Position numbers and translations under genes: made by a program | The notes under the pieces: generated by a model | Database searches by the model: none | Told to the model about the DNA's origin: nothing | The model's input: the letters and a program-made list of their open reading frames with translations, nothing else | Shown: in pieces, positions 1 through 44,300 of the stretch | How positions within the stretch are numbered: position 1 is the first letter of the stretch | How the letters are laid out: each line of letters opens with the position of its first letter | IMG/VR virus record: IMGVR_UViG_3300033233_000064 | Span: 1 to 44,300 of that record | Length of the DNA stretch: 44,300 bases | Direction: 5' to 3' (one strand) | Source: a virus

Positions 1-147
1 AAAGAGATAGGAATTGGTAGAAATATTTATTATTGGTTAATAAAAAATGGATTTCCAAAAAATTATCAAATATTATGTTTCAATTGCAATCTAGCAAAAG
101 CACATTGGGGCTTATGTCCACATCAAAAACTGAAGATGGTTACAAAG
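1..147. repeat. Left copy of 147-bp direct terminal repeat
   Basis: Bases 1-147 match 44154-44300 with one mismatch (A at 127, G at 44280). The repeat lies inside the HNH endonuclease gene, and joining the ends restores one intact reading frame. This means the molecule is circular or terminally redundant and the contig is complete. The mismatch changes a Lys codon to Glu, so the two ends came from slightly different molecules or carry a base error. Confidence 0.95.
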
Positions 148-173: not shown

Positions 174-524
174 ATGATAATAGTATATAAACAAGGAACT
201 TTTGAGTCAGCTCACCAATTAGACGGCCACCCAAAGTGTGGAAAGTTACATGGTCATTCTTATAAGTACGAAGTATGGATTTCAGCAGAACAATTAAAAT
301 TACCTTATGAATTTGTCATAGATTTTCACAATATTAGTGGTTATTTCAAACAATTTGATCATTCAGATAAAGTAATAAAAGAAAGTTGCGAACAATTTGT
401 CTTACTGGCAGTTGAGAACTTTCATAAAGTAATGGAACAAATGACACATAGAGATTATATTATCAAAGTTAGAATTTGGGAAACACCAACAGCTTATGCA
501 GAACTTGAACAACATTTTACCTGA
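174..524 (+). CDS. queD: 6-carboxy-5,6,7,8-tetrahydropterin synthase (QueD)
   Basis: QueD converts 7,8-dihydroneopterin triphosphate to 6-carboxytetrahydropterin, the second step from GTP to 7-deazaguanine. The 116-residue protein has the family's usual length. Zinc ligands are visible as H14 (SAH), H26 and H28 (LHGH). The catalytic C22 lies in PKCGKLHGH, the D62-H63 pair in FDHSDK, and the C-terminal signature WETPTAYAE carries E103. The start is the first ATG after the HNH stop, with no Shine-Dalgarno sequence. The gene opens a six-gene operon and overlaps queE by 29 bases. In a phage this set points to base modification of DNA rather than tRNA queuosine synthesis. Confidence 0.93.
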   Translation: MIIVYKQGTFESAHQLDGHPKCGKLHGHSYKYEVWISAEQLKLPYEFVIDFHNISGYFKQFDHSDKVIKESCEQFVLLAVENFHKVMEQMTHRDYIIKVRIWETPTAYAELEQHFT

Positions 525-1341
525 GGGAATATTACAGTCATTCGATCCTGAACTCAAACGAGCATTCGAGGTCAATGACACTATACCTGAAAAAGACAAA
601 GATTATACAAAAATTAAACTACGCCCTGGTTTCTTAAAAGTGTCGGGAGATTATGTATTTTATACTCTACAAGGCGAAGGTATGACTATGGGTATGCCAG
701 CGGTATTTCTACGTCTAAAGCTCTGTAATCTTCGCTGTGTTTGGTGCGATGCCTGGTATACATGGAACCCAAAAGCTATTGAGTTTTGGAAAGAAGGCGA
801 AGACTGGGAGTTGAATTTTGCAGTAACACGAATAAAAGCAGCATGGGATTTGAATTGTAAGAACAAAAAGATAGTGCCACGCTTAGTAATTACTGGTGGT
901 GAACCTTTACTACAGAAAGAAGCAATAGATAATTTAATGAATTTATTGCCTACTTGGAAGATTGAAATTGAAACAAATGGAACAATTATGCCTACTCCAC
1001 TACAATTTTTTAGATGTCAATTTAACTGTTCGCCTAAGTTAGCAAATAGTAAAAATGTACCACAAGCTCGTATCAACAAAGGAGTATTGCAAAAACTTAA
1101 TCAAGCGAATACAATCTTTAAGTTTGTAGTAATGAACGAAGACGATGTCAGGGAAGTTGAGTCAGATTTTGTTGAAGCTTTTAGTCTTGATCCGAACAAA
1201 GTAGTCTTAATGCCGCAAGGAGTAAAGGAAGAAGAAATCCAAATGAATATGAGGAACGTAGCTGAAATTGCTAAAAGGAAAGGCTATCGATTGCTTGGGA
1301 GATTACACGTTACCCTCTGGGGTGCTAAACGGAAAGTATGA
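496..1341 (+). CDS. queE: 7-carboxy-7-deazaguanine synthase (QueE), radical SAM
   Basis: QueE is a radical SAM enzyme that contracts 6-carboxytetrahydropterin to 7-carboxy-7-deazaguanine. The protein has 281 residues, somewhat longer than many QueEs because of an extra N-terminal stretch of about 45 residues. The substrate signature YTLQGEG is at 56-62. The iron-sulfur ligands are C77, C81 and C84 in CNLRCVWC, the CX3CX2C spacing, and TGGEP at 133-137 binds SAM. The start lies inside queD in another frame. The end overlaps folE by four bases (ATGA), typical of translational coupling. Confidence 0.94.
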   Translation: MQNLNNILPEGILQSFDPELKRAFEVNDTIPEKDKDYTKIKLRPGFLKVSGDYVFYTLQGEGMTMGMPAVFLRLKLCNLRCVWCDAWYTWNPKAIEFWKEGEDWELNFAVTRIKAAWDLNCKNKKIVPRLVITGGEPLLQKEAIDNLMNLLPTWKIEIETNGTIMPTPLQFFRCQFNCSPKLANSKNVPQARINKGVLQKLNQANTIFKFVVMNEDDVREVESDFVEAFSLDPNKVVLMPQGVKEEEIQMNMRNVAEIAKRKGYRLLGRLHVTLWGAKRKV

Positions 1342-1898
1342 AAACGTTTGATAAATACAAAGTAGAAAAAGCTGTAGGTGATTTATTGTCGGCTCTTGGA
1401 ATAGATTGGATCAATGATGACAATTTCAAAGAGACACCTATTCGTGTAAGTAAGGCAATGAAAGAAATGAACGCTGGTTTATACGAAGAATATAATGGAG
1501 TAAAGGTATTCAAGTCAGATTATAAGGGTATGATTTCATTTAATAATATATCTGCGATTGGTCTTTGTCCTCATCACTTACTCCCTATTGAATACGAAAT
1601 ATCGTTTGCTTATATTCCAACACAATACGTTTTAGGGCTTTCTAAAGTTCCACGTGTAATTAAAAATCTTTGTTCTCGTCCTGTTTTACAAGAAGACCTT
1701 ACTAAAGATATTGTAGAATACTTTGAGAAAAAACTACATCCATTAGGAATGGCAGTTGTTGTGAAAGGTATTCATGGCTGTATGAAATATAGAGGCATAA
1801 AAGAAGCAGAAATAGTTAAGACTTCCGAGCTAACAGGGCCATTTTTAACTGAACCTGATGCTCGAGAAGAATTTTACCAATTAATCAATAATCTATGA
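1338..1898 (+). CDS. folE: GTP cyclohydrolase I (FolE)
   Basis: FolE opens GTP to 7,8-dihydroneopterin triphosphate, the first step of both folate and 7-deazaguanine synthesis. The 186-residue protein is near the family's usual length. The zinc site is visible as C77 and the HH pair 79-80 in LCPHHLLP, with C148 in HGCMKYRG. The core GLSKVPR at 100-106 is also typical. Both ends overlap neighbours by ATGA (queE before, queC after), so it is embedded in the operon. Carrying its own FolE frees the phage from the host pterin supply. Confidence 0.94.
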   Translation: MKTFDKYKVEKAVGDLLSALGIDWINDDNFKETPIRVSKAMKEMNAGLYEEYNGVKVFKSDYKGMISFNNISAIGLCPHHLLPIEYEISFAYIPTQYVLGLSKVPRVIKNLCSRPVLQEDLTKDIVEYFEKKLHPLGMAVVVKGIHGCMKYRGIKEAEIVKTSELTGPFLTEPDAREEFYQLINNL

Positions 1899-2632
1899 AT
1901 GAACCAAAAATAGTTGTGATTGTATCTGGCGGCATGGACTCAATAACGCTTCTTTATTTAGCATTACATGACGCAGGAAAAGACCCGAAGAATATTAAAG
2001 CATTATCTTTTAATTATGGTCAGAAACATAAAAAAGAACTAGGCAAAGCTCATCAAATCTGTGTAAATCTAGGTATAGAACATCATATAATTCAATTACC
2101 TATTGGTGAATTCTTAACGTCAGCTCTTACAACTAAAGAAACAAAAGTACCAGAAGGCCATTATGCACAAGCTAATATGAGCCAGACAGTCGTACCAAAC
2201 CGCAATATGATTATGCTTTCACAGGCGTATGCGTATGCAACTTCAATAGGTTTTGACAAAGTTTACTTTGGTGCTCATGCAGGAGATCACCCAATCTATC
2301 CTGATTGCCGACTTTCATTTGTAATAGCATTGAACAATGCTCTCAAAGTAGCTAACGAAGGCTATTCTAAAGTTTATATTGCAGCTCCTTTTATAAATAT
2401 CACGAAAGGACAAATTGTAAGAATAGGCAGAACATTAGACGTGCCTTATGAGGATACGTGGTCGTGTTATAAAGGTGAAAATAGACCTTGTGGTAAATGT
2501 GGAACGTGTGTTGAACGTACAGAAGCGTTTTTGTCTAACAATATTAAAGACCCAGCTATGACAAATGAAGAATGGCAAAAAGCAGTTGGTTATTATCAAT
2601 TAGCAAAAAAACAATATGAACAACCTAAATAA
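1895..2632 (+). CDS. queC: 7-cyano-7-deazaguanine (preQ0) synthase (QueC)
   Basis: QueC uses ATP and ammonia to turn 7-carboxy-7-deazaguanine into preQ0. The PP-loop SGGMDS sits at residues 11-16 near the N-terminus. A C-terminal zinc site is formed by C191, C199, C202 and C205 (SCYKGENRPCGKCGTC). At 245 residues it is slightly longer than the bacterial enzyme. There is no fused glutamine amidotransferase domain, unlike phage proteins linked to the G+ modification. It overlaps folE by four bases and queF by 17. Confidence 0.94.
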   Translation: MNEPKIVVIVSGGMDSITLLYLALHDAGKDPKNIKALSFNYGQKHKKELGKAHQICVNLGIEHHIIQLPIGEFLTSALTTKETKVPEGHYAQANMSQTVVPNRNMIMLSQAYAYATSIGFDKVYFGAHAGDHPIYPDCRLSFVIALNNALKVANEGYSKVYIAAPFINITKGQIVRIGRTLDVPYEDTWSCYKGENRPCGKCGTCVERTEAFLSNNIKDPAMTNEEWQKAVGYYQLAKKQYEQPK

Positions 2633-3101
2633 GAAGTATGGAGAGGAAACAATCAATAAGTTTGCTGATCCTAAGCAATGGGAAATATGGCCTGCCCCAA
2701 AAGGATTAGAAGTGTTATATCAAACATTTCCTGAATTTACCTGTCTTTGTCCGAGATCGAGTTATCCTGATTTTGCTAAGGTACATTTAATTATAGTTCC
2801 ACGTGATAAAGTTTTAGAATTGAAAGCATTAAAACTGTGGCTTAATTCTTATCGGGAAAAGAAGATTAGTCACGAAAATGCTACATATGAAATACTACAG
2901 ACGTTATGCCAGTATCTCGATATTCGGTATGGATTTATACTTATGGAATACACGCCACGAGGAAATCTTACTACTTATCCAATGCGGGAGTTTATAGGAA
3001 CTATGGAAGCTTTCCATGAGTCTGAAATTAAAAGTGTTATTCAAAATGCTCATTTCATAAAAGAACAACTAATTAAAAAAGTTCTTAACAGAGTACCATG
3101 A
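2616..3101 (+). CDS. queF: preQ0 reductase (QueF)
   Basis: QueF reduces the nitrile of preQ0 to the aminomethyl group of preQ1 with NADPH. This 161-residue protein has the unimodular QueF layout. The nucleophilic cysteine is C45 in FTCLCPRSSYPDFA, with acid D52. The NADPH-binding motif E(S/L)K(S/A)hK appears as ELKALKLW at 68-75, and the HE pair is H86-E87. A YTPRG segment follows, as in Bacillus QueF. Because the NADPH motif is present, it fits a true reductase better than the archaeal QueF-like amidinotransferase, which lacks it. This predicts preQ1, not preQ0 or archaeosine, as the end product. Confidence 0.88.
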   Translation: MNNLNKKYGEETINKFADPKQWEIWPAPKGLEVLYQTFPEFTCLCPRSSYPDFAKVHLIIVPRDKVLELKALKLWLNSYREKKISHENATYEILQTLCQYLDIRYGFILMEYTPRGNLTTYPMREFIGTMEAFHESEIKSVIQNAHFIKEQLIKKVLNRVP

Positions 3102-3102
3102 T

Positions 3103-3906
3103 ATGCAAATCTATTTCTCAACGACCACCTTACAGTACGGCTTATATGAGTCTCTTGTTGAAATGGACGTGAGAAATATGTTGTTTTCGTATGAGTATAG
3201 GAGTAACTATAATGATTGGCTCAATCTTATAAAGCACCTTAATAAACCTAACGTAATGATAGATAGCGGAGCATTTTCGGCTTGGACAATCAACAAGCCA
3301 GTAAATAGAGAAAAGTATTTAGAATTCATTTACAAAGTTAGAGCTGAATTTACTCCATACGTCAGTAATATTTTTTATGTCAATCTTGATATGATACCAG
3401 GTGAGTTTGGACGGAAGCCGACAAGTGATGAAATAGAACAGTCAGCACAGAAAGGATTAGATAATTATTACTGGTTTAAAGAGAAAGGAATAACAACGAT
3501 CCATGTATTCCACCAACACGAAGATTTCAAATGGCTTGAAAAACTGATGGCACTAGAGCCTTATATTGGAATATCGCCAGCAAATGATTTGACAACAAAA
3601 TCAAGATTGCCCTGGCTTTACAAATGTTTCTCGATCGTAAAAGATAAGAATAAGACCCATTGTTTTGGCGGAACAAGTAAAGACATACTCTATCAAGTAC
3701 CTTTTTATTCAGCAGACAGCTCAAGTTATGCTATTAGTCGAAAGTTTAGTCCTCGGTGGCATGGTACAAAAGTAGGAGCTGAGGTGAAAAATAAAAACAT
3801 TACGTTTATAATTAAGAAGAAGATCAAAGAAGAAATCAGGGAAAAGTTAACGATTGAACATGAAGCAACTTTACTTTGGAAACAACGAGGTATTAACCTC
3901 AATTAA
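3103..3906 (+). CDS. dpdA: DpdA-like DNA guanine transglycosylase
   Basis: This 267-residue protein resembles phage DpdA, the tRNA-guanine transglycosylase relative that swaps guanine for a 7-deazaguanine base in DNA. IDSGAFSAW at 53-61 matches the TGT DSGG(F/Y) substrate pocket, with D54 as the counterpart of the TGT active-site Asp. YIGISP (154-159), HCFGGTS (186-192) and FYSADSSS (201-208) follow, with D205 a candidate nucleophile; that assignment is an inference. The C-terminal tail is basic. It is shorter than bacterial Tgt and lacks the Tgt zinc ligands. It starts one base after queF and closes the operon. Confidence 0.82.
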   Translation: MQIYFSTTTLQYGLYESLVEMDVRNMLFSYEYRSNYNDWLNLIKHLNKPNVMIDSGAFSAWTINKPVNREKYLEFIYKVRAEFTPYVSNIFYVNLDMIPGEFGRKPTSDEIEQSAQKGLDNYYWFKEKGITTIHVFHQHEDFKWLEKLMALEPYIGISPANDLTTKSRLPWLYKCFSIVKDKNKTHCFGGTSKDILYQVPFYSADSSSYAISRKFSPRWHGTKVGAEVKNKNITFIIKKKIKEEIREKLTIEHEATLLWKQRGINLN

Positions 3907-3927: not shown

Positions 3928-4500
3928 ATGTCAGAACTAAAGATAGTCGGTACAGTTATCACTATTCCAGTCGATCAGATATTTCCTAATGCGTGGAACC
4001 CGAAAGAGTCGGTTGATGATAATAGATTTAACAAAGAAGAATACGAGAAGTTAAAAATTACGATCGCAAATAAAGGCTACAATGATTATATTAAAGTAAG
4101 ACAAGTCGATGGAAAATACGAAATTGTTGATGGATTTCATAGGTGGAAAGCGTGTAAAGAGTTAGGTTTTAAAGAGCTTGTTTGTATAAATTATGGGTCT
4201 ATTTCAAAAGAAGAAGCAATCGGCATTACATTAGACACAATCTACATAAGAATACCCGCGAGTGAAGTATTAACCGCAAAACTGGTGAAAGATTTAGTTA
4301 CCATGGGAGTGGCAAAAGAAAAGATTGGTCCATTCGATACAGCAAAGATAGAAGAATACCTGCAAATGGCAAACTATGATTGGAGTAAGATTGAGCATGC
4401 GGTAGCACCTACGGACGAGCATAAAAAAGTTAAGTGTCCTAATTGTGGCAATATATTTGAGCCTAACCTCTGGGTCAATGAGGAAAATACAAATAACTAA
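3928..4500 (+). CDS. ParB-like nuclease-domain protein with C-terminal CxxC
   Basis: The first 100 residues look like the ParB/sulfiredoxin N-terminal domain: a start strand with IPVDQIFPN at 13-21, and the signature YEIVDGFHRWKACKELG at 64-80 with its GxxR-like helix. The C-terminus has a single CPNCGN knuckle (C170, C173), half of a zinc ribbon. Phage ParB-like genes often sit directly before terminase genes, as here, but their exact role (DNA binding, nicking or packaging) is uncertain. 190 residues. It lies two bases upstream of the small terminase gene. Confidence 0.7.
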   Translation: MSELKIVGTVITIPVDQIFPNAWNPKESVDDNRFNKEEYEKLKITIANKGYNDYIKVRQVDGKYEIVDGFHRWKACKELGFKELVCINYGSISKEEAIGITLDTIYIRIPASEVLTAKLVKDLVTMGVAKEKIGPFDTAKIEEYLQMANYDWSKIEHAVAPTDEHKKVKCPNCGNIFEPNLWVNEENTNN

Positions 4501-4502
4501 TT

Positions 4503-5039
4503 ATGGGAGAAGTATTACCATTAACAAATACTCAATGGACGGAGAGGTTAGAAAAATTACGTCCGCACCTACGACAAGGTAAGTCTCTTTATAGAGCTTG
4601 TGTTGACGCTTCAGTCCCTCATAGTTCTACAATGGAAAAGTTTAATACTGATAAAGACTGGGCGGAAAGAGTAGAGCGTGAAATGAACTACGTGGCTGGT
4701 CTATATTACCAAGGCATGTATTCACGAATACTTATTATCTCAAATAAGGTACAGAAACAGACGGAAATCTCAAATCAGTTCATAGATAAAAAGATCACTG
4801 AAGAAGAGTTTCATAAACAAATGGAAAAATGGAAGCTAACAATAAGCGAAGACATCTTTTGGAAATGGTTATCGGAACACCACCCAAGCGTAAAAAATGA
4901 GTTTGCAGCACGTTCGGAAGTAACAGGTAAGGATGGAGCTGATTTATTGCCTAAAGAGTTGTTGCAGCCTAAAGCACTTGAAACAGCCTTGAAAACCTTA
5001 GAATATATCATTAAAAAAGAACAACAGACGGTAAAATAA
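4503..5039 (+). CDS. terS: Terminase small subunit (putative)
   Basis: This 178-residue protein directly precedes the large terminase. Residues 20-45 (GKSLYRACVDASVPHSS) read as a helix-turn-helix, the DNA-recognition part of small terminases. A helical middle follows, and the segment EFAARSEVTGKDGAD is a common small-terminase signature near the C-terminus. It would recognise phage DNA and load the large subunit. The call rests on that motif, size and position. Confidence 0.72.
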   Translation: MGEVLPLTNTQWTERLEKLRPHLRQGKSLYRACVDASVPHSSTMEKFNTDKDWAERVEREMNYVAGLYYQGMYSRILIISNKVQKQTEISNQFIDKKITEEEFHKQMEKWKLTISEDIFWKWLSEHHPSVKNEFAARSEVTGKDGADLLPKELLQPKALETALKTLEYIIKKEQQTVK

Positions 5040-5044
5040 TATGT

Positions 5045-6607
5045 ATGGACTACAAAATAATTTATGATGAGGGCTTTAGACAAGAATTGTTTAAAGCCAA
5101 TCCTGACTTTATCAGAGAATACCTGCCTCTGCTAAAACAAGGAATTAGTTCAATGCCACTTTCTAAGTTTGCTGAAATCTACGTTAATGCATGGGATCCA
5201 GAAGCCTTACAGAATGGTTGGCATGGAGTAAACTTACAAGACTATTACGAGGAAATATGGACAAATCACCCTAAATCTATAATTAAAGCACCAAGAGGAC
5301 ACCTTAAAACTACGTCAGTACTCGAATGGGTAGTGAAGCAACTTATACTCAGAAACTATCCTCTTGAAGTTAATTACTACCACTGGTCAGTTGATCTTGC
5401 TATAGAAAAGCTTCGGAAGATAAGGCGGATTATTGAAGCTAATCCTGTACTAAGATACTTCTTACAGATAGATGAAGCACAATCGTTAAAGCAAGACCTT
5501 ATTGTCCTCAAAGACGGTACTATGGTTCAGCCTCTTTCATGGAAGACAGGAGTTATAGGTAAACACCCTCACATTATCGTATTAGATGATGTTATCTCAA
5601 AAGACGTAATTTACTCGGACGAACTTAATAAGAAAGCGATCGAAAAGTACTATCTTGATATTAACCCAATGATTACTAAAATGACAGAGGATAAAAAGAT
5701 TATTGTTATTGGTACAAGTCAGAGGAAAGACGACCTTTATGAAACCTTGCCAGCAGACTTTCATAAGATAATACTACAGGCTATCGTTGACGAGGACAAG
5801 AAACAGACCCTCGCTCCTGATCTTTATACGTATGACGACTTAATGAAAATGAGAGATAGTATCTTAAACAATCCGCTTGAAGGAGGGGAACGGTTTTGGT
5901 TGAAAGAATATATGAATATTCCTTTTGATAGACTAGGTACGATCGTAAAGAAACAAGACATACTTTATTACACCCAAGACCCATTTGACTTTGCCCGGAC
6001 TACTAAATTAGTTATCTTTCAAGGTTGGGATATTTCGGTAGGCAAGGATTTAGAAAAAGCAGACTGGACAGCAGGAGCAACACTGGGTATTCAAATACTT
6101 AAAGACGGAACATTACTTACATATCTTCTTGAAATGTTTGTTGCCCGAATTTTATTTAATGATAGACTTGAAGCGATTAAAAATATGTATAACCGGTGGC
6201 GGGAATTTTATCCTGCCGCAATAGGTATCGAGTCTGTTTCATTCCAGTATGATACTATTCAAGAACTAATCCGTACCACTAATTTGCCCATTATTGAAGT
6301 AAAAGCAATTAAGAACAAAATAGAAAGTTTCCAGACTGAATTAGGTCCATACTTTGAAAGGCATAAGGTATATATACATGAAAGTATGAAAGGAGTCGAA
6401 ACAGAACTATTAAGTTTGCCTACCGGATCACATGACGACCAAGCAGATGCTTTGAAGATTGCGATTAAGACTGCTTTATTCATGCCGATAGGTGGTGCGG
6501 TTTCAGATCAAGGAAAAGTAACGTCTAACTTTACTCCACCAAGAAAAGACTCAAAAGACATTCCAAGCCAAGCAAGTTTCGGTACAGTAAGAAGCAAGCA
6601 GTTTTGA
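5045..6607 (+). CDS. terL: Terminase large subunit
   Basis: The 520-residue packaging motor has an ATPase half with a Walker A variant PRGHLKTT (83-90) and Walker B HIIVLDDV (176-183). Its nuclease half carries D329 in GWDIS and the metal-binding HDDQAD (463-468). It pumps DNA into the prohead and cuts it. An overlapping ATG at 5041 is out of frame, so 5045 is taken as the start. There is no Shine-Dalgarno sequence. The final 40 residues are polar and probably disordered. Confidence 0.92.
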   Translation: MDYKIIYDEGFRQELFKANPDFIREYLPLLKQGISSMPLSKFAEIYVNAWDPEALQNGWHGVNLQDYYEEIWTNHPKSIIKAPRGHLKTTSVLEWVVKQLILRNYPLEVNYYHWSVDLAIEKLRKIRRIIEANPVLRYFLQIDEAQSLKQDLIVLKDGTMVQPLSWKTGVIGKHPHIIVLDDVISKDVIYSDELNKKAIEKYYLDINPMITKMTEDKKIIVIGTSQRKDDLYETLPADFHKIILQAIVDEDKKQTLAPDLYTYDDLMKMRDSILNNPLEGGERFWLKEYMNIPFDRLGTIVKKQDILYYTQDPFDFARTTKLVIFQGWDISVGKDLEKADWTAGATLGIQILKDGTLLTYLLEMFVARILFNDRLEAIKNMYNRWREFYPAAIGIESVSFQYDTIQELIRTTNLPIIEVKAIKNKIESFQTELGPYFERHKVYIHESMKGVETELLSLPTGSHDDQADALKIAIKTALFMPIGGAVSDQGKVTSNFTPPRKDSKDIPSQASFGTVRSKQF

Positions 6608-31408: not shown

Positions 31409-31449
31409 TACTATTCTAAGCCGATCTGAAAGGAGTCTTTAATTTGCAG

Positions 31450-31479
31450 TTGACATTTAATATACATTAGTTTTATAAT
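31450..31479 (+). promoter_or_regulatory. Early promoter, family member 1
   Basis: GCAGTTGACATT begins the -35 (TTGACA 31450-31455), followed by 18 bases and TATAAT (31474-31479). It belongs with the promoters at 33385 and 35933, which share GCAGTTGACATT and a TATA-rich spacer. Confidence 0.75.
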
Positions 31480-31493
31480 ATGTATATTAAGTT

Positions 31494-33160: not shown

Positions 33161-33388
33161 ATGGAAAATGAAATAGAATATTTAAAAGAATTAAAGACCT
33201 TACTGTTTAAGAAAATTGACAGTAAGTGTCCGGTTTATGAAGTCAATGCGGTTATTGATGAAATCCGTATCTATCAAGCAATTATCGAAAAAGATTTTAA
33301 GAAACAAAAACAGCAGATTAAAGAAACGGAAAACTCATTTCAAGCCGTATTGTCAAGCATAGAACAGGTAATTAAAAAAAGCAGTTGA
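33161..33388 (+). CDS. Small helical protein, unknown
   Basis: The 75-residue protein is predicted as one long helix (EIEYLKELKTLLFKKI, then QQIKETENSF). Its stop overlaps the next promoter region (TTGACA at 33385). Coiled-coil oligomer possible; no family recognised. Confidence 0.5.
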   Translation: MENEIEYLKELKTLLFKKIDSKCPVYEVNAVIDEIRIYQAIIEKDFKKQKQQIKETENSFQAVLSSIEQVIKKSS

Positions 33389-33414
33389 CATTCATTATAC
33401 ATTATTATTATAAT
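33385..33414 (+). promoter_or_regulatory. Early promoter, family member 2
   Basis: TTGACA (33385-33390), 18 bases, TATAAT (33409-33414). It shares GCAGTTGACATTCATTATA with the 35933 promoter. Confidence 0.75.
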
Positions 33415-33427
33415 ATTTATAACAAAG

Positions 33428-35799: not shown

Positions 35800-35925
35800 A
35801 TGACTATATGGAAATTGATCGTATTCATTATTTCTATTCTTACGTATTTATTTGTAGGTTGGTACGCGTTATTCATATTATTACTTATTCCAGTATTAGA
35901 AATTATCGAAAGGCATTGGAATTAA
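35800..35925 (+). CDS. Very small membrane protein
   Basis: The 41-residue protein is nearly all hydrophobic (LIVFIISILTYLFVGW, then FILLLIPVLEI), with one or two membrane helices. It is too short for most gene finders. It lies between the nuclease gene and the next promoter. Confidence 0.5.
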   Translation: MTIWKLIVFIISILTYLFVGWYALFILLLIPVLEIIERHWN

Positions 35926-35932
35926 AAAGCAG

Positions 35933-35961
35933 TTGACATTCATTATAAATTATATTAACAT
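35933..35961 (+). promoter_or_regulatory. Early promoter, family member 3
   Basis: TTGACA (35933-35938), 17 bases, TAACAT (35956-35961), with the same AGCAGTTGACATTCATTATA block as 33385. ATG 35992 lies 30 bases downstream. Confidence 0.7.
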
Positions 35962-35991
35962 AATTTATAGGTTATCAATTTAATCAATTAT

Positions 35992-42558: not shown

Positions 42559-43047
42559 ATGCAATTCGAGACTGCTCTAGTCCTAAAAAGAATTACCATA
42601 CGGATACCAGAGAAGTTTCACTTCCGAATAATGGAGATAGAGAGAGTTTTAGGTTCAAAAGAAGTCAATTACAACTCGATTATGCGTACACTTTTATCTT
42701 ACGGGCTTCAGATTTACGAAGAAGAAAACTTAAAAGTAGATAAAGGAGAAAAGATAGAAAAAAAGATAGAAAAGAAAATAGAAAAGCCAAATCATAAAGT
42801 TAATGGTAAGGAAAAGAATCAATTGATTACTGATGGCGGCGAATTATTGTGTTGCCAGTCGTGTGGAACGACACCTAAAAAGCTTACGAGCTTTAAACAC
42901 AAGGAAGACATCTTTGTTTTTTGTGATGAATGCGTAAAGTTAAATAGGCATAAAGAAGTTATTAAACGGATAGACAAAAACCTTTACGGAGATGAGATTT
43001 ATATGTTTGACCAGTCAAAAAATGGAACAAATCAAGTTTTTATGTGA
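42559..43047 (+). CDS. RHH-type regulator with zinc-ribbon half
   Basis: The 162-residue protein starts with a ribbon-helix-helix-like segment (LKRITIRIPEKFHFRIMEI and NYNSIMRTLLSYGLQIYEE). A Lys/Glu repeat linker (IEKKIEKKIEK) and a zinc ribbon (CCQSC and CDEC) follow. The layout suggests a DNA-binding regulator with a metal site. It overlaps the methionine aminopeptidase gene by 26 bases. Confidence 0.55.
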   Translation: MQFETALVLKRITIRIPEKFHFRIMEIERVLGSKEVNYNSIMRTLLSYGLQIYEEENLKVDKGEKIEKKIEKKIEKPNHKVNGKEKNQLITDGGELLCCQSCGTTPKKLTSFKHKEDIFVFCDECVKLNRHKEVIKRIDKNLYGDEIYMFDQSKNGTNQVFM

Positions 43048-43759
43048 ACTGTTTCGAATACTGGTAGGCAAGGCGAAAGTTGGAGTAACTACAAAGCAAT
43101 TGGACGAGTTTGCAGAAAAGTACATTATAGACCATGGGTACCAACCTTTCAATAAAGGATATAAGCATCAAATATGTGAGTTTCCATATCCGGCAACACT
43201 GTGTACTTCGGTCAATGAAGTGATCGCTCATGGATTTCCGTCAGATTATAAACTTCAAGACGGTGATTTAATAAATATTGATACCGCAGTCTGGAAAGAC
43301 AACAGATGTGCAGATGCGGCTATGAGTATTGGAATAGGACAGATAAGCGAAAGAGATCAAGAATTGTTAACAGTAGCAAAGAAAGTACTATGGGCTGGGA
43401 TTGAAAGTATAAAGCCAAAAGTTCAGGTCAAAGATATCGGTTCTATAATGAATAAAAAAGCAGAAGAACTGGGTTATGTCACTAATCGTTACCTCGGCGG
43501 TCATGGGATTGGTGAAAATATGCACCAATACCCTACTATCCCTAATTTCTATGATCACAATAACAATCAAATAGTCGAAGAAGGCATGATTATTTGTCTT
43601 GAACCGCAAGTCACGAAGAAAGACCGAGAAGGAATTATCAGTAATGGCGGGTGGACTTTGAAAACAAAAGATAACAAGAAAAGTGCTTACTTCGAACACA
43701 TGATAAGAGTCGGTAAAGAAGGGCCAGAGATATTGACAGATCATTTTACATATCCATAG
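43022..43759 (+). CDS. map: Methionine aminopeptidase type I
   Basis: The 245-residue protein removes initiator methionine from new proteins. All metal and catalytic residues are present with the spacing of the E. coli enzyme: H70 (IAHGFP), D87 (NIDTAV), D98 (CADAAM), H161 (GGHGIG), E194 (CLEPQ) and E225 (FEHMIRV). ATG 43022 gives a good N-terminus (VGKAKVGVTTKQLDEF); a longer in-frame start at 42992 overlaps more of the upstream gene. MetAP is unusual in a 44-kb phage. Confidence 0.92.
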   Translation: MEQIKFLCELFRILVGKAKVGVTTKQLDEFAEKYIIDHGYQPFNKGYKHQICEFPYPATLCTSVNEVIAHGFPSDYKLQDGDLINIDTAVWKDNRCADAAMSIGIGQISERDQELLTVAKKVLWAGIESIKPKVQVKDIGSIMNKKAEELGYVTNRYLGGHGIGENMHQYPTIPNFYDHNNNQIVEEGMIICLEPQVTKKDREGIISNGGWTLKTKDNKKSAYFEHMIRVGKEGPEILTDHFTYP

Positions 43760-43788: not shown

Positions 43789-43796
43789 TGATGGAT

Positions 43797-44300
43797 ATGG
43801 GATTTGAAAAGGGACACGTTTTTTATAAAGGAGCAGAGAAAGGGTGGTTTAGAAAAGGTCAGACAGCTGTAAATAAGGGTAAGAAATTAAAGAAAGACAA
43901 TTTATGTATAAAATGTAGAAAGTTTCCCACTCTTTTGAATAGTGGTAGCTATTGTAGAGAATGTACTAACGAAAGGCAAAGGATCTGGAGAAATAAGAAC
44001 AGAGAAAGAAGTAGACTAAGTGCAAAAATACAAGGACAAAATGTAAGAAAAAAAGTATTTTTATATTATGGAAATAAATGTATTTGTTGCGGTGAGACTT
44101 GTTACGAATTTCTATCCATTGATCATATAAATAATGATGGAGCATTACATAGAAAAGAGATAGGAATTGGTAGAAATATTTATTATTGGTTAATAAAAAA
44201 TGGATTTCCAAAAAATTATCAAATATTATGTTTCAATTGCAATCTAGCAAAAGCACATTGGGGCTTATGTCCACATCAAGAACTGAAGATGGTTACAAAG
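43797..44300 (+). CDS. HNH homing-type endonuclease, N-terminal and main part
   Basis: Read from ATG 43797 (an earlier ATG at 43791 overlaps the promoter spacing) the frame runs to the window end and closes at base 153. It has zinc knuckles (CIKC, CREC) and the HNH core: CICCGETCYEFLSIDHINND, then NIYYWLIKNGF, then CFNCNLAKAHWGLCPH. This matches phage HNH endonucleases. These genes behave as mobile elements inserted between phage genes; here it sits between the MetAP gene and the queD operon. Its promoter may also serve the operon, because no other promoter was seen before queD. Confidence 0.85.
   Translation, partial: MGFEKGHVFYKGAEKGWFRKGQTAVNKGKKLKKDNLCIKCRKFPTLLNSGSYCRECTNERQRIWRNKNRERSRLSAKIQGQNVRKKVFLYYGNKCICCGETCYEFLSIDHINNDGALHRKEIGIGRNIYYWLIKNGFPKNYQILCFNCNLAKAHWGLCPHQELKMVTK
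44154..44300. repeat. Right copy of 147-bp direct terminal repeat
   Basis: Matches bases 1-147 except G at 44280 (A at 127). It marks the point where the circle was cut during assembly or the terminally redundant end of the molecule. Confidence 0.95.

What the first reader, a model, noticed from the sequence alone, without database searches (positions are those of the whole stretch)
174..3906. Complete GTP-to-preQ1 pathway plus DpdA: self-sufficient 7-deazaguanine DNA modification
Six genes in a tight operon, with ATGA or short overlaps, encode FolE, QueD, QueE, QueC, QueF and a DpdA-like transglycosylase. Established work shows that phages with DpdA place preQ0, preQ1, G+ or ADG bases in DNA to resist restriction. 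Many carry only part of the pathway. Here the set looks complete and every catalytic motif I checked is present.
Basis: partly seen in the sequence, partly recalled or inferred. Interest (0 to 1): 0.85.

Follow-up and report, generated by a model that had tools for sequence, protein, structure and literature searches.

The report
Phage cassette for preQ1-modified DNA
This bacterial virus carries its own full set of genes to make a modified guanine from GTP and swap it into its DNA, probably to dodge host restriction enzymes; the kit is already known from other phages, but here a small ParB-like protein, probably a dedicated helper of the swapping enzyme, travels with it.

Summary
Bases 174-3906 hold six co-directional genes in the order queD-queE-folE-queC-queF-dpdA. 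Each has convincing family matches, and the catalytic residues checked are present. QueF meets every criterion of a preQ0 nitrile reductase, not a QueF-L archaeosine synthase, so the likeliest product is preQ1, placed in DNA as dPreQ1.

The set is not new. Streptococcus phage Dp-1 (dPreQ1 measured), Cellulophaga phages, Nanhaivirus and Arthrobacter phage Mufasa8 carry the same genes. Of 80 metagenomic phage loci fetched by DpdA alone, 25 hold all six.

Two things were missed. The contig is a complete genome: 147-bp terminal repeats give a 44,153-bp circle. And the cassette probably has a seventh gene, a ParB-fold protein at 3928-4500. Of its 24 closest relatives, 20 sit directly behind DpdA. 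ParB-paired DpdAs are shorter than the rest. It resembles bacterial DpdB only in superfamily; a mycobacteriophage paper already guessed such a link. The ParB role is inferred, not shown.

The parts
174..524 (+). queD: 6-carboxytetrahydropterin synthase, 116 aa
   Evidence: PTPS 9e-16; motif FESAH..CGKLHGHS aligned to solved QueD; DH and C-terminal Glu motifs read from sequence
496..1341 (+). queE: radical-SAM 7-carboxy-7-deazaguanine synthase, 281 aa
   Evidence: phrog_2076 7.4e-54; CNLRCVWC cluster motif and TLQGEG aligned to solved QueE
1338..1898 (+). folE: GTP cyclohydrolase I, 186 aa
   Evidence: PF01227 6e-45; zinc ligands CPHH and GCM aligned
1895..2632 (+). queC: 7-cyano-7-deazaguanine (preQ0) synthase, 245 aa
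   Evidence: PF06508 8e-65; SGGMDS PP-loop and CX8CX2CX2C zinc site
2616..3101 (+). queF: preQ0 nitrile reductase, unimodular, 161 aa
   Evidence: QueF-II over cut-off; Cys45, Asp52, Glu87 and QueF motif ELKALKLW match B. subtilis QueF; QueF-L lacks the motif (criteria from PMC5372742)
3103..3906 (+). dpdA: short DNA-guanine transglycosylase, 267 aa
   Evidence: phrog_887 1.6e-36; AlphaFold pLDDT 91; Foldseek best hits TGT in PDB and phage DpdA in BFVD; D54, D96, H186, D205 invariant in 54 homologues
3928..4500 (+). ParB_N-domain protein with C-terminal zinc ribbon, 190 aa; candidate DpdA partner
   Evidence: PF02195 3.8e-9; ParB fold; 20 of the 24 nearest relatives lie directly behind DpdA
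4503..5039 (+). probable small terminase subunit, 178 aa (by position; weak Sf6-terminase match)
5045..6607 (+). large terminase subunit, 520 aa
   Evidence: phrog_38 1.5e-57
43791..44300 (+). HNH endonuclease gene, 5' part; continues at 1-153 across the circular join, directly before queD
   Evidence: 171-aa ORF intact across the join
1..147 (.). terminal direct repeat, equal to 44154-44300 with one mismatch; closes a 44,153-bp circle

Best explanation
A self-contained DNA-modification cassette of a siphovirus-like phage. FolE, QueD, QueE and QueC turn GTP into preQ0; QueF reduces it with NADPH to preQ1; DpdA cuts guanine from the phage DNA backbone and puts the 7-deazaguanine in its place, giving dPreQ1 DNA that host restriction enzymes handle poorly. 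Shown here: gene set, motifs, folds, operon structure, complete genome. Inferred from relatives: the reactions and protection from restriction. Inferred and less sure: that free preQ1 rather than preQ0 is the inserted base, and that the adjacent ParB-fold protein helps DpdA to engage DNA.
For: Family matches and motifs for all six enzymes. DpdA fold and conserved catalytic residues. QueF meets all four published QueF criteria, and QueF-L does not carry the motif (PMC5372742). The same gene set in Dp-1 gives dPreQ1 and no dG+ in virion DNA; CAjan needs dpdA for modification and for restriction resistance (PMC6884629). No queuosine or preQ0 transporter family (Vut_1, QueT) among scanned ORFs. 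The cassette is kept as a unit in L002, L010 and many IMG/VR contigs.
Against: No chemistry was measured. DpdA has no detectable sequence match to a solved TGT, and hhalign to E. coli TGT aligns only the DSGGF block; PDB TM-scores are about 0.53 and other TIM barrels follow close behind. Hutinet et al. leave open whether phage QueF acts on the free base or on dPreQ0 in DNA. Dp-1 is only lightly modified. The host is unknown.
Confidence: 0.84

Rival explanations
1. The product in DNA is archaeosine (dG+): the T-fold protein is a QueF-L amidinotransferase acting on dPreQ0.
For: HHpred classed most phage QueF proteins closer to QueF-L (PMC6884629); QueF-L is detected weakly.
Against: The protein scores 62 bits to QueF against 22 to QueF-L and carries the NADPH motif ELKALKLW that QueF-L lacks; Dp-1, with a like protein, has dPreQ1 and no dG+.
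Confidence: 0.06
2. An auxiliary queuosine module: the phage boosts preQ1 for host tRNA and the TIM barrel acts on tRNA.
For: The enzyme shares the tRNA TGT fold; phages with preQ0 genes but no DpdA exist.
Against: No QueA, QueG or QueH family was found in the scanned ORFs. The protein has only two cysteines and no TGT zinc site. Nearest relatives are phage DpdA, and dpdA of CAjan is needed for DNA modification.
Confidence: 0.06
3. DpdA inserts preQ0 and QueF then reduces the nitrile in DNA, so queF is the last step rather than the fifth.
For: Hutinet et al. state that this cannot be excluded; CAjan, Rosebush and nt-1 DNA carries dPreQ0.
Against: QueF reacts with the free base in bacteria; the active-site motifs here are those of the free-base enzyme.
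Confidence: 0.2
4. The ParB-fold protein belongs to the packaging module (ParB-TerS-TerL) and has nothing to do with DpdA.
For: Here it lies directly before TerS and TerL; L193 has ParB with TerL and no DpdA.
Against: Of the 24 nearest ParB relatives 20 have DpdA directly in front, with gaps of -34 to +70 nt except one of 289, against 2 of the next 56; ten or so of those 20 show no TerL match in the fetched stretch. In phi38:2 and Mufasa8 the pair sits among que genes with no terminase annotated nearby.
Confidence: 0.3

Closest known systems
Streptococcus phage Dp-1 (queF-queC-queD-queE-folE-queT-dpdA)
   Same: All six enzymes in one operon; QueF motif ESKSLKLY; dPreQ1 measured in its DNA (PMC6884629)
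   Different: Other gene order, a QueT transporter, a longer DpdA (311 aa) and no adjacent ParB
Arthrobacter phage Mufasa8 (dpdA-parB-queF-queC-queD-queE-folE)
   Same: All seven genes including ParB directly behind DpdA; best viral structural match to the window DpdA, TM 0.84
   Different: DpdA leads the cassette; its QueF is annotated as GTP cyclohydrolase I and its QueE as lipoyl synthase
Cellulophaga phages phi38:2, phi3:1, phiSM
   Same: Six genes plus a ParB-like gene overlapping the end of dpdA; DpdA 34% identical
   Different: Genes spread over about 6 kb, away from terminase; ParB lacks the GxHR motif
Nanhaivirus (Pan1, R26L)
   Same: FolE, QueD, QueE, QueC, QueF and DpdA present
   Different: DpdA 433 aa, no ParB beside it, queE several genes away
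Escherichia phage CAjan
   Same: preQ0 pathway plus DpdA; dpdA needed for modification and restriction resistance
   Different: No QueF; carries dPreQ0; putative preQ0 transporter
Bacterial dpd cluster (DpdA + DpdB + DpdC)
   Same: DNA transglycosylase with a ParB-superfamily helper (DpdB, PMC12839542)
   Different: DpdB is a 350-aa DGQHR protein; the window ParB does not match its model

Membership tests
GTP-to-preQ0 pathway (FolE, QueD, QueE, QueC) | All four enzymes with catalytic and metal-binding motifs | tested here: met
QueF (preQ0 nitrile reductase) | Cys55, Asp62, Glu97 (B. subtilis numbering) and the QueF motif E(S/L)K(S/A)hK(L/Y)(Y/F/W) | tested here: met
   C45, D52, E87, ELKALKLW (criteria in PMC5372742)
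QueF-L (archaeosine synthase) | QueF-like fold without the NADPH-binding QueF motif | tested here: not met
   motif present; QueF-L 5jyx aligns with AIEEFKKM in its place
DpdA (DNA-guanine transglycosylase) | TGT-like barrel with the base-binding DSG Asp and the nucleophilic Asp | tested here: met
   the role of each Asp is assigned by analogy with TGT
DpdA (DNA-guanine transglycosylase) | Grouping with known phage DpdA in sequence | tested here: met
   phrog_887 1.6e-36; tblastn to Cellulophaga, Mufasa8, CAjan; tree
DpdA (DNA-guanine transglycosylase) | Exchange of guanine in DNA | not testable with these tools
   needs biochemistry
tRNA-guanine transglycosylase (Tgt) | C-terminal zinc site CXCX2C...H | tested here: not met
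   only Cys175 and Cys187 in the protein
DpdB (NCBIfam NF041060) | Match to the DpdB model | tested here: not met
   no match in the window; hhalign to DpdB-like proteins aligns 57 columns around DGxHR, probability 55%
ParB/Srx superfamily | ParB_N domain and fold with the GxHR/GxRR box | tested here: met
7-deazaguanine-modified phages | 7-deazaguanine measured in virion DNA | not testable with these tools
   needs LC-MS of virion DNA

The most novel reading that the evidence does not exclude
Short phage DpdAs form an obligate two-protein insertion module with a dedicated, translationally coupled ParB-fold protein that supplies DNA binding or nucleotide-driven loading in trans, a phage counterpart of bacterial DpdB; the window is one member of a broad group found in many phage lineages.
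Probability: 0.5. Interest if true: 0.6.

Novelty: new member of a known kind. Interest (0 to 1): 0.42.

Why it matters
The cassette makes the phage independent of host queuosine metabolism for the precursor, and dPreQ1 was reported as possibly the most protective of the 7-deazaguanine marks tested (HVTV-1; PMC6884629). The broader value is the ParB link. ParBc proteins also accompany the cytosine modifier CmoX and are often fused to DNA methyltransferases, with their role there called unknown (PMC12783734). A small, complete seven-gene cassette with a compact DpdA is a good system in which to ask what ParB does for DNA base modification.

Tried and rejected
Rejected: unrelated TIM barrel; QueF-L; ParB as a recognisable DpdB by model. 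A fused DpdA-ParB protein was looked for among ORFs of the fetched loci and none was found. A DpdA profile against PDB sequences gave only a chance hit. PADLOC gave only the ParB domain of type II methyltransferases for the ParB protein. Promoter and terminator scans were near the shuffled expectation and not used. The paper I recall as defining later phage deazaguanine types (NAR 2023) is not held, so DpdA subtype naming was not tested. Host assignment was not achieved: TerL has only remote, taxonomically mixed relatives.

Full report
Observation. The window is an entire IMG/VR virus record of 44,300 bases. Six co-directional ORFs fill 174-3906: queD, queE, folE, queC, queF, dpdA, with junctions of -29, -4, -4, -17 and +1 nt. 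All six have strong family matches, although DpdA is recognised only by PHROGs (phrog_887, 1.6e-36). Alignment to solved structures places the known functional residues: the QueD Cys/His box, the QueE CX3CX2C cluster and TLQGEG, FolE CPHH and Cys, QueC SGGMDS and its four-Cys zinc site, and QueF Cys, Asp and Glu.

Completeness of the genome. Bases 1-147 repeat at 44154-44300 with one mismatch, and a 171-aa HNH endonuclease gene reads through the join, so the map is a circle of 44,153 bp. The single mismatch may be why the record is classed linear. The operon therefore runs HNH - que genes - dpdA - parB - terS - terL without a cut edge. Fifty-three further ORFs give structural, replication and lysis families, and no queuosine or preQ0 transporter. 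Head, portal, protease, tail and tape-measure proteins mark a tailed, siphovirus-like phage.

Which base. Hutinet et al. (PMC6884629) found phage QueF and QueF-L hard to separate. The published QueF criteria are Cys55, Asp62, Glu97 and the motif E(S/L)K(S/A)hK(L/Y)(Y/F/W), which contains residues that bind NADPH (PMC5372742). The window protein has all of them (ELKALKLW), while archaeal QueF-L reads AIEEFKKM at that place. The bit scores are 62 and 22. So preQ1 is expected, as in Dp-1, whose homologous set yields dPreQ1 and no dG+. Whether reduction precedes or follows insertion is open.

Is it DpdA. The AlphaFold model built on 54 homologues has mean pLDDT 91. The seven best PDB hits are all tRNA-guanine transglycosylases (E about 1e-4, TM about 0.5), followed by other TIM barrels. 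In the viral library the best hits are phage queuine tRNA-ribosyltransferases, Mufasa8 first at TM 0.84. Asp54 (in DSGAF), Gly56, Asp96, His186 and Asp205 are invariant. Asp54 and Asp205 sit in the motifs that hold the base-binding and nucleophilic Asp of TGT (inference from the aligned DSGGF block, and from general knowledge of TGT). The protein has only two cysteines and no zinc site.

How common. Of 80 IMG/VR loci fetched with DpdA alone, 43 carry QueF and 25 all six genes within the fetched stretch, although many are cut by contig ends. Among 121 distinct DpdA sequences, including loci fetched through QueF (a biased set), 60 have all six. Sequenced phages with the set include Dp-1, Cellulophaga phages, Nanhaivirus and Mufasa8. 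The finding is thus a new member of a known kind.

The seventh gene. A ParB_N protein (3928-4500) follows dpdA after 21 nt. (a) Beside DpdA, 17 of 105 neighbour proteins match ParB_N, against at most 1 of 105 proteins from five or more genes away in the same loci (Fisher p about 8e-5). (b) A ParB gene lies within 400 nt of 21 of 121 DpdAs; on the DpdA tree the label needs 8 changes, at least 6 forced by well-supported branches, against about 21 for shuffled labels, so the pairing is inherited in clades and has arisen or been lost several times. (c) ParB-paired DpdAs are shorter, median 269 against 322 aa (Mann-Whitney p about 1e-8, not corrected for kinship). Four of the unpaired ones, at 248-254 aa, have an upstream neighbour that in three cases is a weak ParB_N match. 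(d) Reciprocally, among the 80 best ParB relatives, 20 of the top 24 have DpdA directly in front, and 2 of the other 56; several of these are near-duplicates. Of the four exceptions, two (L194, L205) are cut at the contig edge, one (L195) follows a truncated queC, and one (L193) truly lacks DpdA. (e) Pairwise distances of 18 ParB/DpdA pairs correlate (Mantel r 0.66, 0 of 5000 permutations as high), which co-inheritance alone could also give.

What the ParB protein may do. Its model matches ParB/Noc N-domains, with sulfiredoxin and free serine kinase further down. The nucleotide-binding box reads DGFHR, and bacterial DpdB-like proteins have DGQHR, but the two families share only that block and the NCBIfam DpdB model does not hit the window. 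Bacterial DpdB is described as a ParB-like ATPase that helps insertion and is dispensable in some clusters (PMC12839542). The CRB2 mycobacteriophage paper suggested a ParB-superfamily ORF beside DpdA as a dpdB homologue (PMC6392294). ParBc proteins accompany another phage base modifier, CmoX, with unknown role (PMC12783734). The most likely reading is that ParB gives a compact DpdA its hold on DNA; this is inference.

Verdict. The set is known and common; the ParB partner and the complete circular genome are the additions. Interest is moderate.

Noticed in passing
window 1-147 and 44154-44300: 147-bp direct terminal repeat with one mismatch; the record is called linear but closes to a 44,153-bp circle.
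   Followed up: yes
window 3928-4500: ParB_N protein with a C-terminal zinc ribbon, coupled to dpdA in many phages; candidate partner of DpdA.
   Followed up: yes
window 43791-44300 and 1-153: HNH endonuclease gene directly upstream of queD, crossing the record's join; HNH-like ORFs also lie within the que region of L003 and near the broken queC in L195.
   Followed up: partly
window 42992-43756: M24 metallopeptidase resembling methionine aminopeptidase (PF00557, 7e-38) in a phage; a Cys-rich ORF (42559-43047) overlaps its start.
   Followed up: no
window 31441-31486, 33376-33421, 35924-35969: Three 46-nt repeats, each with a TTGACA box and most with a TATAAT-like box, possibly repeated promoters.
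   Followed up: no
window 2616-3101: This QueF lacks the conserved second cysteine (Cys99) that protects B. subtilis QueF from oxidation and has Ala there; instead an extra Cys sits two residues before the catalytic one (CLC), also in L002 and L003.
   Followed up: partly
L184 5521-5928 (Mufasa8 gene 92): Annotated as GTP cyclohydrolase I but matches the QueF profile (2e-31) with ESKALKLY, and not the FolE profile; probably a misannotated QueF.
   Followed up: yes
L195 2643-3744: Truncated queC directly before a ParB of this subfamily, no DpdA: looks like a decayed cassette.
   Followed up: partly
L005 6711-7175, L036, L037, L038: ParB-like neighbours of DpdA in the Cellulophaga clade have lost the GxHR box yet keep their place behind DpdA, so nucleotide binding may be dispensable there.
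   Followed up: no
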